DNA of 22,971 nt from IMG/VR virus record IMGVR_UViG_3300049595_002648, positions 1-22,971 of that record, one strand, 5' to 3'. The number at the start of each line of letters is the position of its first letter. Position 1 is the stretch's first letter. This document shows positions 1,883 through 7,344 of the stretch, in pieces. Origin of the DNA: a virus. The notes below the pieces were generated by a model. The model had not been told where the DNA came from. It searched no databases and saw nothing but the letters and a program-made list of their open reading frames with translations. A program made the translations under genes and the position numbers.

Positions 1883-1951
1883 GACCACACACACATGCAA
1901 ATGAGGGAGAACACATACCCTCAGACCTATATCTACCACAATCGTTCAATC

Positions 1952-1980
1952 TTGCAAGGGGAAAATGACCTTGCTAGGCT
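1952..1980 (+). promoter_or_regulatory. Weak promoter-like site upstream of the giant repeat protein
   Basis: TTGCAA (1952-1957), a 17-nt spacer and TAGGCT (1975-1980) precede the ATG at 2010. The -10 matches only at T, A and the final T. Some promoter is expected here because this is the first gene of the only plus-strand transcription unit, but the sequence match itself is weak. Confidence 0.25.
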
Positions 1981-2009
1981 AGGTGTTTTAGAGTAGGTTC
2001 TCTTGATCC

Positions 2010-5000
2010 ATGGCTGTTGAAAACCCTCCCCTAAATAGAATCTACGTCCTTGGCTATGCAGCCAACGACAGAGATTATCCGATAGTATCAATGAGCCTTG
2101 ATCCGCGTGTTGCGGGATACAAGGTTCCTGAAGATCTTTCGACCTGTCCAGATAAACGTTACAAAACCCATGTTTTTACTGGTGCCCAGCCCCTCTCTGG
2201 GGACGAGCGGGTGCGCCATGTGTGGGAAATCCTCCCCTCTCCTTGGGTTCCATTTACCCGCTATGATGATGACCTTGGCCCCATTCAGGGACGCAGGCGG
2301 TCTGTTGAGAACACGGGACAGCAAGCCTCTTTAACTTCCGATACTAAGATATCATATGAGGGGAGAGAGGGCTCTGCTATTGTTTCTACAGAGTTAGAGG
2401 AGACTTGGTCGATCAAGACCGACGAGGATGGCAATTCTCTTTTCCCTATCAAGGATCGGGATTTTTATGATGCCTCTCGCGGCCCCGTCCAAGAACGCCG
2501 CCAACTCTTTGTCCCCACGGGAGAAGAGGTTGGCAGTCTGGAAAACATAGGCGGAGTTATCACCCAAACCAGCTACGAGCCCTACAACGAATTTCTTTCG
2601 GTCAAGATCGTCCAGACCTACAGGGTGGATGGGCCTCAGTTGATCGGTAAAACCACCGACAATGACGGCCAGTTGGTTACAGTTACCACTCAGCGCAAGG
2701 GTGCGTTAAACTATATCCCGCCCAACCCTACCGCAACTAGGACTGTTGAGGTTAACCGCGAAGATGCCGAATCGTTGGTTGAGCGGGTTATTGACACGCC
2801 AGAAATCTTCAAAGCGAATACATTTTCTGTTGAACGCCCTGATCCCATTCCTCAGAAGTTTCGCGTAGCCGTCCCCATCCAGTCCTCTCAGGAGATTGTC
2901 GAGGGGGACGCTGACCCCAATGTCAGCCTAGACGAAGGAGAACTCTCTAAGAGCGAGGAACAACGCAATAAGTTTATCAAGCGCGTGTCTTCTACTTCGC
3001 GGGATCAAGCTGTTCTGCCTAAAACACTTACGGGAAAGTCCACCAACAACGAAAGACAGGAAGTCACTGTCACCGAGACTCTTCAGCTAGGCAACACCGA
3101 CGAAACCCCCACAGCTACCACCACCGTTGAATCCGAGGCTTTGGGTGATGGGAACTACGTCATTACTAAGACGCAAGTGGATGAGGTGTTTTCTGCCATC
3201 ACATTTTCCAAAGAACGACCAGACCCCGTTCCTCCCAAGTTCCGCGCAGCCATTCCCTCGTTGACCCGCCAAGAAGACTTGGAGGGTGAAGCCGAAGAAC
3301 CCACTTTAGTTGCGGGAGAAATTGTCAAGAGCGAACAACAGGTCAATCAGTTCGTTAAACGGATGTCTACTACGGCCAGAGATGCCGCCCAGCTTCCTAA
3401 GTCACTGACTCAAAAGCTAACAACCAATGAAGGGTTGCTGGCCACCGTTACCGAAACTCTACAGAATGGAGATACTACGGCAGTACCAACATCAAAAAAG
3501 ACAGTTGAATCAGAAGCCCTTGGGGATGGGACGTATGTGGTTCGCGTCACCGAAAGCCCAAAAGTATTTTCCGCCAAAACATTCCGCGCCGAAAAAGCAG
3601 ATCTTACCCCGCAAAAGTTCAGAGCTAAACAGTCTGATTTAACCACCGAAGAAAACATTGAAGGAACAGCCGCGCAACCAACTCTTGGTGAAAATCAATT
3701 TTTAAAGTCGGAACAACAGATCAATGAATTTGTAAAGAGGGTTACTACAAACACCAGAACCACGGAGATTAGTGATACACTGGATGAATCTGTAATTACG
3801 CCAGAAGGCCAGCTTGCCACTAGGACAATCACGCTTTCAAAATCAGCGCAAACACTTGTCCCATCAGCTACAGTTATTGATGGTAACGTGGAAGAACTTG
3901 GTGATGGGCGCACGGTCAAAACAGAAGTCAGGGTTGATGAGGTGTTTGACGGAAAACAAGAGTCCTTGGAGAAGCCAGAAGTTATTCCTCCTGAGTTTCG
4001 GGCTTCGCTGCAAAACAGAACAATCTCAGAAGTAAAGACGGGACAAGCCATTAGCCTGCCGAGCCTGTCTCAAGACGAGCTTTCCAAAACCATTCAAAGG
4101 GTTACCGAACACAAGATTCGCGAGACCAAGGTTACCAGACCCTCTGATGACTATCCAGAACTTACAGGCGAACTGGTTGACAATGATCAAATCAAAGTAA
4201 CTCGCACCAGAACGGTTGCCAAGGGAGGTCAAACTATTACACCTAGCGCCACGGTAAGCGGAAGTGTGGAGGCCTTGGGAGATGGATACACGCTCAAAAC
4301 TGAAGACACCAAGGAAAAATTCTTTGAAGGAAAATCTTTTTCCCAAGAAAAACCAGACAACATCCCCGTTGAATTCCGCGCCGAAAAACCCGTTACCATT
4401 GAAGAGTTTACGGAGGAAGGTAATGCTGGAGCAGTAAGCCTTTCTGACAATGAAATTTCCAAGTCAGAACAACAGGTCACAGAATTCCTTAAACGCACCA
4501 GAACGGCCACAAGAGACATTGTTGGCGGGGTTACACTTGAGGGCGAGCAAATAGACCAAGACGGGATTAAGGTAACCGTTACAAGAAGCCTTCAAGATGG
4601 ATCGCAATCAATAGCACCAAGCGCAACAACGAGCGGTCAGGTTGAGGCCATCGGTGATGGGAAGACAATCAAAACAGAACTTGAGAAATCTGAAGTATTT
4701 GATGCAAGAACCCTGACGCGCCAGCAGGCATTTCAACTTCCAGCTAAGTTTGTCACTGGAGAGACCGAAGAAGAGTCTTTTGTTGAAGCAGCAGAGGATG
4801 CCGAACCCGAAGAATTGGGCGACAACGGAATTGGAATTGTCCAATCTACAGCCCAGCGAGTAACGGCATTTACCGTCAGAAAAACAACGAGGACGGTTGA
4901 TGGAGAAACATCAACCACAGAAAAACAACTCAGCAACAGCGGCCAAGAGATAACCATTGAATCCGAAATATCCGACAATTCGTCCATTGAAACTGGTGCC

Positions 5001-6746
5001 AAAGTTGAAATCGCCAGAACGCAAGCCATCGGAGGCGGAAAGTTCCTCAAGGAAATTGGAAAAGTTGAGGAGGTTTTTGATTCCAAGCAAAGAACTTTCA
5101 CTCAAGCTGCTCAAATTCCAGCCAAATTCCTTGATGGAAAGATAACCGAAACAAACTTTATTGAAGAGGGAACAACCGAAGAACCCGAGGAACTTGGAAC
5201 TGATGGATTCGGGATTGTCCAATCCTCGTCACAAAGAGTCAATGCGTTTTTGCGCCGTCAAACCCAAAGAGAGCAAGAGGGCACAACATCTCTCACAGAA
5301 AACCAAACCAACAACTTCAAACAAAAGATTACTGTAGAATCTTCTATTGTTGACGATCCCGAAGTAGAACCTTCCGCCAAAACTGAATTTGCCAGAACGC
5401 AAGCTATTGGAGGGGGAAAATACGTCAAGGAAATCGGGACAGTTGACAATCTCTTTCCTCAACAATCATTTACAAAAGAAAAACCAGATCCAGCGCCCCA
5501 AAAATTCAGAATAGAACTTCCAGCCTTAACGGACGAGGTAACAACCGAGGCAACTAGCGTAAGCGAGGGAGATGTTAATTTAGGTCCCGATGATTTAGCA
5601 AAAAGTGTGCAGCAGGTAGACGCATTTACCAAAAGAACAAGAACCACATCAAGAAGCGGAAATGCAGACGGATCACTCTCTGGAGAGGTTTTCACAACTG
5701 AACTTGGTGGCGGAAAAGCAACAGTTGTTGAAAACTATGGATCCAACCCGACAATTAATCCAGCTTTTGGAACAATAGCTTCAGAAAAAGAAGCTCTTGG
5801 TGGAGGAAAGTTCTTAACAAGAGAAGTAACACTTACCAACCCGCCGCCCCTTGATGGACAGGAATATGACGAGACATATGATGTTTTGATACCATACACC
5901 GAACAATTCGTGGAAGGCGGAACAACAGACACTCCAAACGCATCTATTGTTCCGAGAGATGTTTTCCATTCAAGGCAGAGGATTATTGATGTTGAAGCGG
6001 CAAGGCAAGCATATCTTGATAGCATTATTGTTCTTGATGATGTGGTAAATATATCCCTTCCAGACAAGCTTATTGATGTTATTGTAAACATTGAAAAAAT
6101 AGAAGGAGGAGAAAATCAAACATCCGAAGGTAACTCCTGTTCGGCAAGCGCCACGGCTTTTGCCAGCTATGATCTTGATGTTGGATTTGAGGTTCGCAAT
6201 GGATATTCTGGCCCAACCATTGCCAAAAAGTATGTATTCTTTATTGATGCAGTAAGTCAATATGAGGTATCTGGAATTATTGGAAGAGTGAACAGGGTGG
6301 CCGGTGAAGGCAGTTCAGGCGTAAAAGAGTTTCCTGTATTTCGCACAAAATCCGAAACAATAACAACAAAAGTTATATCAGAGCGAATTACGGCAACCGC
6401 TTCTGTTTCGCTTCCAAAAAACAAAAACAAATCTTTGTCTGTGGACAAACAAGTGAATGCGAACATTATAAATATTCCCCCAACACTTCATGGCCGTTTC
6501 ACTATTAAAACAAACAAAGAACATATTGTTGAAAGAACAGCAAAAGCAGTGGGAGAAAACACTGGTACATCTGAGGTCATCGCAAAAGCAAAAGCCCAAG
6601 CCATTATTTCTCAAGACATAATAGAAACTTTTCCAGAAAAATTTCCAACTGGGAGATATCTTGTTTCTGTCAACTCTCAACCATACAGGTTTAATTTAAT
6701 TAGAATTGAGGCCGTTGTGGTTGAAGTTACAGAAAACATGGTATAA
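2010..6746 (+). CDS. Giant tandem-repeat virion-like protein (about 126-residue repeats)
   Basis: A 1578-residue protein dominated by tandem units. A conserved PxKFR-type anchor recurs at residues 283, 410, 536, 662, 788, 913, 1039 and 1165, a period of 125-127 residues. Degenerate units flank these near 157 and 1291. Each unit has the order anchor, acidic stretch, KSEQQV..F.KR, a Thr-rich strand region, T.T.T, P(S/T)AT, and (V/A)EALGDG..(V/I)KTE, before (E)VF..KTFS.EKPD and the next anchor. The N-terminus (to about 150) has VRHVWEILPSPWVPFT, like the LPGPW segments I recall from repetitive phage structural proteins. The C-terminal 230 residues are non-repetitive and beta-rich, with IPPTLHGRF. 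No transmembrane segment or signal peptide is evident. It is probably a fibre or decoration protein. It is the only large gene on the plus strand, and GC falls clearly from 5' to 3'. Confidence 0.8.
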   Translation: MAVENPPLNRIYVLGYAANDRDYPIVSMSLDPRVAGYKVPEDLSTCPDKRYKTHVFTGAQPLSGDERVRHVWEILPSPWVPFTRYDDDLGPIQGRRRSVENTGQQASLTSDTKISYEGREGSAIVSTELEETWSIKTDEDGNSLFPIKDRDFYDASRGPVQERRQLFVPTGEEVGSLENIGGVITQTSYEPYNEFLSVKIVQTYRVDGPQLIGKTTDNDGQLVTVTTQRKGALNYIPPNPTATRTVEVNREDAESLVERVIDTPEIFKANTFSVERPDPIPQKFRVAVPIQSSQEIVEGDADPNVSLDEGELSKSEEQRNKFIKRVSSTSRDQAVLPKTLTGKSTNNERQEVTVTETLQLGNTDETPTATTTVESEALGDGNYVITKTQVDEVFSAITFSKERPDPVPPKFRAAIPSLTRQEDLEGEAEEPTLVAGEIVKSEQQVNQFVKRMSTTARDAAQLPKSLTQKLTTNEGLLATVTETLQNGDTTAVPTSKKTVESEALGDGTYVVRVTESPKVFSAKTFRAEKADLTPQKFRAKQSDLTTEENIEGTAAQPTLGENQFLKSEQQINEFVKRVTTNTRTTEISDTLDESVITPEGQLATRTITLSKSAQTLVPSATVIDGNVEELGDGRTVKTEVRVDEVFDGKQESLEKPEVIPPEFRASLQNRTISEVKTGQAISLPSLSQDELSKTIQRVTEHKIRETKVTRPSDDYPELTGELVDNDQIKVTRTRTVAKGGQTITPSATVSGSVEALGDGYTLKTEDTKEKFFEGKSFSQEKPDNIPVEFRAEKPVTIEEFTEEGNAGAVSLSDNEISKSEQQVTEFLKRTRTATRDIVGGVTLEGEQIDQDGIKVTVTRSLQDGSQSIAPSATTSGQVEAIGDGKTIKTELEKSEVFDARTLTRQQAFQLPAKFVTGETEEESFVEAAEDAEPEELGDNGIGIVQSTAQRVTAFTVRKTTRTVDGETSTTEKQLSNSGQEITIESEISDNSSIETGAKVEIARTQAIGGGKFLKEIGKVEEVFDSKQRTFTQAAQIPAKFLDGKITETNFIEEGTTEEPEELGTDGFGIVQSSSQRVNAFLRRQTQREQEGTTSLTENQTNNFKQKITVESSIVDDPEVEPSAKTEFARTQAIGGGKYVKEIGTVDNLFPQQSFTKEKPDPAPQKFRIELPALTDEVTTEATSVSEGDVNLGPDDLAKSVQQVDAFTKRTRTTSRSGNADGSLSGEVFTTELGGGKATVVENYGSNPTINPAFGTIASEKEALGGGKFLTREVTLTNPPPLDGQEYDETYDVLIPYTEQFVEGGTTDTPNASIVPRDVFHSRQRIIDVEAARQAYLDSIIVLDDVVNISLPDKLIDVIVNIEKIEGGENQTSEGNSCSASATAFASYDLDVGFEVRNGYSGPTIAKKYVFFIDAVSQYEVSGIIGRVNRVAGEGSSGVKEFPVFRTKSETITTKVISERITATASVSLPKNKNKSLSVDKQVNANIINIPPTLHGRFTIKTNKEHIVERTAKAVGENTGTSEVIAKAKAQAIISQDIIETFPEKFPTGRYLVSVNSQPYRFNLIRIEAVVVEVTENMV
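2856..5880 (+). repeat. Tandem coding repeat, unit about 378 bp
   Basis: Codons for the repeat anchor Lys/Glu occur at 2856, 3237, 3615, 3993, 4371, 4746, 5124 and 5502, a period of 375-381 bp, always in frame. The next expected anchor, about 5880, is degenerate. Protein conservation exceeds DNA conservation, so these are old duplications under selection. Units 6 and 7 (from about 4746 and 5124) are closest to each other, sharing EPEELG, GIGIVQS or GFGIVQS, and FARTQAIGGGK-type blocks. Confidence 0.85.
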
Positions 6747-6755
6747 ATTGCACAA

Positions 6756-7061
6756 ATGAACAAAGACACACCATCACTTGGAACCTCAATAGAGGCAGCG
6801 CAAATTAACTCAAGAATAACTGGGCTTGATTCAAAATTAACCTCAGTTGCTGCAAATTCGCTTAAATCGAAATCCGAAACCAAGTCTCCAGCGTCTTCAT
6901 CACAATCTTCTTCTGCGCTTGATCGTGGCGGGCAGGCTTCATCACCTCAATACAATTGCATTTTTAACATTTGTTATAACGGAGAGCCAAGGCAATTTGC
7001 GCTTGCTGGCCAACTTTTGAGAGAAGACGAGGAGTTTGATCCAGTTCCGCCGCTTATATGA
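6756..7061 (+). CDS. Ser-rich hypothetical protein
   Basis: A 101-residue protein starting 9 bp after the giant repeat gene and surely co-transcribed with it. The N-terminal half is low-complexity and Ser/Thr/Lys-rich (KSKSETKSPASSSQSSSA). The C-terminal half has YNCIFNICYNGEPRQFALAG and an acidic end. No family recognised. It shares the A/T-rich composition of the 3' end of the preceding gene. Its last codons overlap the end of the convergent helix-turn-helix-like gene by 8 bp (7054-7061), leaving no room for an intergenic terminator. It could be a chaperone, head or capping partner of the large protein, which is only a guess from adjacency. Confidence 0.6.
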   Translation: MNKDTPSLGTSIEAAQINSRITGLDSKLTSVAANSLKSKSETKSPASSSQSSSALDRGGQASSPQYNCIFNICYNGEPRQFALAGQLLREDEEFDPVPPLI

Positions 7062-7344
7062 TGGGCCTGACGAAGTTTATTGTCTTAATAGTCCCGCCAT
7101 CTTTGACCCTTTTCTTTTCGCGATCAAACTTTCCTTCGCCAATCATGTTGCGGATTCGGGTATTGGACAGGCCAGTAATTTTCGTTACCTGATCCACTGT
7201 TTTCCATCCTTCGGCGTTCATGGCCTCAATGGTGGTGAATGTGGTATCCCTGCCAACGGACTCCCAAACCTTATCCCATGATGAGATTACAATTTTAGGA
7301 GCGGGCTTTTTTGTTCTACTAGCTTTGCTATGTGTTGTTTCCAT
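7054..7344 (-). CDS. Helix-turn-helix-like DNA-binding protein
   Basis: A 96-residue protein with a basic N-terminal arm (about 1-18). Residues 47-70 (GWKTVDQVTKITGLSNTRIR) look like a helix-turn-helix, with the helix VDQVTKIT, turn GLS and recognition helix NTRIRNMIGEG. A beta-hairpin-like KRVKDGG.IKTINFV end follows, in the manner of a small winged helix. The start at 7344 overlaps the end of the phosphoesterase gene by 58 bp in another frame. The next Met (42) would remove only the tail, so the overlap is not decisive for function. It is the last gene of the long minus-strand series and converges on the plus-strand unit. A late regulator is plausible but not shown. Confidence 0.6.
   Translation of the reverse strand: METTHSKASRTKKPAPKIVISSWDKVWESVGRDTTFTTIEAMNAEGWKTVDQVTKITGLSNTRIRNMIGEGKFDREKKRVKDGGTIKTINFVRPII

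What the first reader, a model, noticed from the sequence alone, without database searches (positions are those of the whole stretch)
2010..6746. 1578-residue protein made of strictly periodic 126-residue repeats on the opposite strand
Anchors at residues 283, 410, 536, 662, 788, 913, 1039 and 1165 show a 125-127 residue period, with degenerate units at each end. Such regular length with low sequence identity suggests a rod with one structural unit per repeat, so total length may be functionally set. It is the only large gene on the plus strand in an otherwise minus-strand late region, hence probably a separately regulated module.
Basis: seen in the sequence. Interest (0 to 1): 0.6.

Follow-up and report, generated by a model that had tools for sequence, protein, structure and literature searches.

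The report
Phage tail-fibre-like rod, variable length
This uncultured phage carries a large protein built from eight full 126-residue beta-strand units plus one partial unit, and close relatives carry the same protein with anything from about none to 14 units. It is therefore most likely a tail-fibre shaft whose length changes readily in whole-unit steps, a ready-made natural series for asking what fibre length does.

Summary
ORF 2010-6746 (+) encodes 1578 residues with a 126-residue period: eight full units at residues 283-1295, a partial unit at 186-282, and unique ends. Structure prediction of three units (mean pLDDT 84) gives about eight strands per unit, with boundaries following the period. 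No Pfam, PDB-sequence, PDB-fold or cultured-phage relative was found.

About 45 distinct viral-contig relatives show what it is: a conserved N-terminal domain, a stack of 2, 3, 4, 5, 7, 8, 9 or 14 recognised units (a few with 0-1; 6 and 10 on other N-termini), and a fast-evolving C-terminus. Protein length rises 126.7 residues per unit (r = 0.998). Phages with 94-98% identical flanking genes differ by up to 14 units. Shaft blocks are exchanged between phages. Nearly every relative then has a small adaptor-like gene, often followed by highly variable genes. In distant relatives the homologue lies on the structural-gene strand, beside or near tail-fibre genes.

Best explanation: a modular receptor-fibre shaft. 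"Length is functionally set" is not supported in general; "separately regulated" is supported by a unique conserved promoter-like element 10 nt before the start codon. Virion location and oligomeric state are not shown.

The parts
1946..1999 (+). conserved promoter-like element: inverted repeat GCAAG(1954-1958)...CTTGC(1970-1974), -35-like TTGCTA (1971-1976), 17-nt spacer, -10-like TAGGTT (1994-1999), 10 nt before the ATG
   Evidence: conserved in nearly all relatives with the -10-like box 7-13 nt from the ATG; single high-scoring copy per genome, 58.7-75.9 bits versus -0.5 or less elsewhere, on 5 contigs. The generic sigma-70 scan did not flag it
2010..6746 (+). whole rod protein, 1578 aa
   Evidence: dN/dS 0.06-0.41 against three close relatives over all three parts
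2010..2564 (+). conserved N-terminal domain (residues 1-185), proposed virion-attachment end
   Evidence: residues 1-282 are 70-88% identical across relatives; low-confidence in the model
2565..2855 (+). partial N-terminal unit (residues 186-282)
   Evidence: unit HMM hits 186-282 (31-126), E 3e-8
2856..3236 (+). unit 1 (residues 283-409)
3237..3614 (+). unit 2 (residues 410-535)
3615..3992 (+). unit 3 (residues 536-661)
3993..4370 (+). unit 4 (residues 662-787); relative L003 switches near its end (window about 4312) to the end of unit 6 (window about 5074), two units on, in the same phase
4371..4745 (+). unit 5 (residues 788-912), absent from L003 and L004
4746..5123 (+). unit 6 (residues 913-1038), largely absent from L003
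5124..5501 (+). unit 7 (residues 1039-1164)
5502..5894 (+). unit 8 (residues 1165-1295)
5895..6746 (+). C-terminal domain (residues 1296-1578), proposed tip-bearing end
   Evidence: fast-evolving; the equivalent region of homologue L008 is mostly predicted with high confidence, with long beta-hairpins
6756..7061 (+). small downstream ORF (101 aa), member of the adaptor-like gene cluster found right after the rod in 44 of 46 family members; short here, and no further tip gene follows

Best explanation
The gene encodes the shaft of a tail fibre (or equivalent receptor appendage) of an uncultured tailed phage. The conserved N-terminal domain docks on the virion; each 126-residue unit is one beta-structured module that adds a fixed rise to a rod; the variable C-terminal domain, with the small protein encoded next and often further variable proteins, makes the receptor-contacting tip. 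Shaft length is changed by gain, loss and exchange of blocks of units between phages at in-register positions, so reach and tip can evolve independently of the anchor. Shown here: unit architecture, integer copy-number variation, block exchange, the three-zone conservation gradient, operon structure and tail-gene synteny in distant relatives. Inferred: presence in the virion, the rod shape, the attachment and tip roles, oligomeric state (probably trimeric), and that length is adaptive.
For: Units and period; predicted fold repeats every 126 residues. Length = 434 + 126.7 x units in 39 complete relatives, r = 0.998. Copy number about 0 to 14 in relatives, differing between phages with near-identical neighbours, e.g. 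L040 (14) vs L046 (7) flanking proteins 97-98%; this window (9) vs L015 (3) 94-100%. Anchor-to-tip gradient typical of receptor fibres: dN/dS 0.07-0.13 in the N-terminal part, 0.06-0.36 in the first units, 0.21-0.49 in the rest. Shaft units match by position between phages rather than within a protein; against L002 synonymous divergence is 1.13 in the N-terminal part but 0.09 in the shaft, i.e. recent block exchange. Downstream gene cluster d0 follows the rod in 44 of 46 family members, often then highly variable genes. In distant relatives with other N-termini the gene lies on the structural strand: L142 next to a tail-fibre gene (phrog_6320, 2.7e-32), L143 one gene from a fibre-assembly homologue (phrog_3304, 1e-6), L139 one small gene from a 1318-aa tail-fibre-like gene (phrog_1591, 2.3e-7), L141 near a tail protein (phrog_5939, 1.8e-61).
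Against: No homology to any named tail fibre by sequence or by fold in the PDB. pTM of the three-unit model is only 0.43, so relative orientation of units (hence a straight rod) is not shown. Trimer formation untested. In the window's clade the gene is separated from the other tail genes by holin, endolysin and nuclease genes.
Confidence: 0.75

Rival explanations
1. A head fibre or capsid/collar whisker: same rod design, but attached to the head or neck and serving as an accessory adhesin rather than a tail fibre.
For: In the window's clade the gene is away from the tail-fibre genes and has its own promoter-like element; the phage has other fibre-like tail proteins.
Against: Distant relatives place it beside or near tail-fibre and fibre-assembly genes.
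Confidence: 0.15
2. A secreted or cell-surface protein of the infected cell (e.g. superinfection exclusion or host-adhesion factor) made from a separate early or middle promoter, not a virion part.
For: Opposite strand and a dedicated promoter-like element with no second copy in the genome; multi-domain beta repeats are common in surface adhesins (general knowledge).
Against: The start of the protein (MAVENPPLNRIYV...) has no visible signal peptide by eye in the translation (no predictor run); tail-gene synteny in distant relatives; the variable C-terminus with variable partner genes fits receptor recognition better.
Confidence: 0.06
3. A ruler or tape-measure-like protein whose unit number sets the length of another structure.
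For: Unit-wise length variation.
Against: Predicted almost wholly beta, while tail tape measures are largely alpha-helical (general knowledge); C-terminal end evolves fast, unlike a ruler.
Confidence: 0.03

Closest known systems
crAss-like phage BACON-domain tandem-repeat proteins (PMC6949934)
   Same: Phage proteins near tail genes built of tandem beta domains; poorly conserved C-terminus in one lineage; array evolution by duplication and horizontal transfer of domains.
   Different: No sequence match to BACON or any Pfam family; the array of eight is described as stable in crAssphage's own lineage, whereas here the number ranges from about 0 to 14 between phages with near-identical neighbouring genes; a single-copy promoter-like element is attached.
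T4 long-tail-fibre proximal shaft gp34 and its multi-gene fibre (PMC5537660)
   Same: Proximal shaft followed by separately encoded more distal parts and a receptor-binding tip.
   Different: No detectable homology; regular 126-residue units; number of units varies widely between close relatives.
Orsay virus CP-delta head fibre (PMC7565637)
   Same: Viral fibre made of repeated beta folding units (abstract only read).
   Different: Animal virus, pentameric beta-bracelet repeats fused to the capsid protein; no homology shown.
A0A6J5RCY2, uncultured Caudovirales phage protein of unknown function
   Same: Only significant viral fold match to homologue L008 (Foldseek E 1.9e-32, 745 aligned columns, 18% identity); likely a family member.
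   Different: Not annotated; its unit number was not examined.

Membership tests
Tailed-phage receptor fibre (shaft protein) | conserved N-terminal attachment end, repetitive shaft, variable C-terminal end | tested here: met
Tailed-phage receptor fibre (shaft protein) | gene located with tail or fibre genes | tested here: inconclusive
   met in distant relatives; in the window's clade it is in the late region but apart from the tail genes
Tailed-phage receptor fibre (shaft protein) | homotrimeric elongated structure in the virion | not testable with these tools
   no multimer prediction; monomer model only
BACON tandem-repeat proteins | repeat unit matches a known Ig-like/BACON profile | tested here: not met
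   no Pfam match at E 0.1; no PDB fold match at E 0.001
Tail tape measure protein | long, mainly alpha-helical protein | tested here: not met
   predicted almost entirely beta

The most novel reading that the evidence does not exclude
A phage group in which fibre length is a rapidly switching, unit-counted trait: an exchangeable shaft cassette under its own single-copy, possibly leaderless promoter, with length (about 0-14 units) tuned to the thickness of the host's surface layer independently of receptor specificity.
Probability: 0.3. Interest if true: 0.75.

Novelty: new variant of a known kind. Interest (0 to 1): 0.5.

Why it matters
Why phage fibres have the lengths they do is hard to test, because length, anchor and tip usually change together. 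Here nature supplies shafts of 2, 3, 4, 5, 7, 8, 9 and 14 recognised units on a nearly constant anchor, some in phages with almost identical neighbouring genes, plus an apparently new beta repeat that could serve as a modular rod.

Tried and rejected
Megablast of the window and tblastn of the protein against cultured phages: no match. The only PHROG hit of the protein (goF, E 0.0015, 22 residues) is not credible. The N4-like virion-RNA-polymerase idea for the giant neighbour gene (phrog_2206, E 3.6e-7) was dropped: another member does not hit it, the motif search showed no conserved polymerase motifs, and the family has an HExGHT zinc-peptidase-like motif. Terminase_6N search: no match. Genome-contig hits of the N-terminal domain are 28-49 residue chance-like matches. 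The first triplet alignment A2 was out of register and not used. An alternative that repeats arose by recent tandem duplication was rejected: within-protein unit identity never exceeds 63% in the panel and units match by position across phages. Assembly artefact was judged unlikely for the same reason.

Full report
Check of the observation. The ORF at 2010-6746 (+) is intact and encodes 1578 residues. A profile made from the eight units finds all eight near full length and a partial ninth at 186-282. Units are only 20-54% identical and TRF sees nothing in the DNA, so the array is old.

Relatives. The window is an IMG/VR virus record of 22,971 bases. No cultured phage has a relative. Three scans of viral contigs with the protein, its N-terminal domain and the units gave about 45 distinct proteins with the same N-terminal domain plus further proteins, several of which carry the same units on a different N-terminal domain. 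Counted with one profile (the partial N-terminal unit included), the number of units in the first set is 2, 3, 4, 5, 7, 8, 9 or 14, with five short or diverged members scoring 0 or 1; 6 and 10 units occur on other N-termini. Over 39 complete proteins length rises by 126.7 residues per unit, r = 0.998. Some low counts may be diverged units that the profile misses, particularly L083 and L085 (778-780 residues).

How length changes. Phages whose flanking proteins are 94-98% identical differ strongly in unit number: L040 has 14 and L046 has 7; L006 has 9 and L052 has 2; the window has 9 and L015 has 3. Units are most similar to the unit at the corresponding place in another phage, not to their neighbours, and blocks of consecutive units correspond (L040 units 4-8 to L006 units 2-6). 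Against L002 the window's synonymous divergence is 1.13 in the N-terminal part and 0.09 in the first units, so the shaft block was exchanged recently. Against L003, which shares the window's C-terminus, about two units differ, and the junction lies at the same phase of the unit (residue 106 versus 109). Which state is ancestral is not known. This pattern suggests in-register recombination rather than slippage; the mechanism itself is inferred.

Structure. AlphaFold2 of window residues 536-912 (three units) gives mean pLDDT 83.7 and roughly eight strands per unit, with short helices at 126-129 and 252-255. pTM is 0.43, so how units stack is unknown. A complete short homologue (L008) gives a mostly confident beta-rich C-terminal domain with long hairpins and a low-confidence N-terminal domain, the latter possibly because its alignment is nearly invariant. 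Foldseek finds no PDB match at E 0.001 for either model; profile searches of PDB sequences find nothing. One uncultured-phage protein is a clear fold match.

Surroundings. The window and its relatives are a late region of an unclassified tailed phage: endolysin, a holin-like protein, head and tail-fibre homologues and an exonuclease; related contigs up to 72.8 kb also carry terminase, DnaB-type helicase and primase homologues. In the window's clade the rod gene is always on the opposite strand to its conserved neighbours. It is followed in 44 of 46 family members by a member of one gene cluster (d0) and often by very variable genes; in the window d0 is short (101 aa) and the next gene is already on the other strand. 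In distant relatives the homologue is on the structural-gene strand, directly beside a tail-fibre gene (L142), one gene from a fibre-assembly homologue (L143), or near tail genes (L139, L141). This is the best evidence for a tail-fibre role.

Regulation. Directly upstream lies a conserved element: inverted repeat GCAAG-N11-CTTGC overlapping a -35-like TTG, a 17-nt spacer and a -10-like TAnnnT box that ends 7-13 nt before the ATG. It scores 58.7-75.9 bits here and at most -0.5 anywhere else in five contigs, so it is specific to this gene. If it is a promoter, the transcript would be nearly leaderless. These phages show no Shine-Dalgarno signal above background (29 of 210 genes against 22-32 of 210 at random positions). 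Their host is unknown; Bacteroidota lack Shine-Dalgarno sequences (PMC3155529), which is a lead only.

Mechanism proposed. Anchor, unit-counted shaft, variable tip: a modular receptor fibre. The conservation gradient (dN/dS 0.07-0.13 N-terminal, 0.06-0.36 first units, 0.21-0.49 remainder), the variable C-terminus and the variable downstream genes fit this. Not shown: virion location, oligomeric state, straightness of the rod, and any benefit of length.

Comparison with the known. The nearest described case is the tandem BACON domains of crAss-like phage proteins near tail genes (PMC6949934), where eight copies are stable in the lineage of crAssphage. The present family has no detectable relation to that domain and varies far more between close relatives. 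I rate it a new variant of a known kind.

Noticed in passing
window 1946-1999: Single-copy conserved promoter-like element with an inverted repeat, 10 nt before the start codon; suggests a dedicated, nearly leaderless transcript.
   Followed up: yes
window 2856-5440 versus L002: Sharp drop of synonymous divergence across the shaft (1.13 in the N-terminal part to 0.09 in the first units): recent horizontal exchange of a shaft block between phages with different C-termini.
   Followed up: yes
L025 15032-20000 continuing in L026 to 4265; L035 6994-14457; L033 10083-20000 continuing in L034 to 2745: Giant gene of 3077, 2487 and 4220 aa in relatives, with a conserved HExGHT zinc-peptidase-like motif; length varies by a factor of 1.7. 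Possibly an injected polyvalent protein.
   Followed up: partly
window and related contigs (whole): No Shine-Dalgarno signal above background in 210 genes, pointing to a host group that does not rely on it; host not identified.
   Followed up: partly
window 6756-7344: In this phage the adaptor-like gene is short and no variable tip gene follows, unlike most relatives.
   Followed up: partly
L003 and L056, downstream of the rod: Small cysteine-rich proteins (cluster d1) sharing a C-terminal CxxC-type motif at the end of the fibre operon.
   Followed up: no
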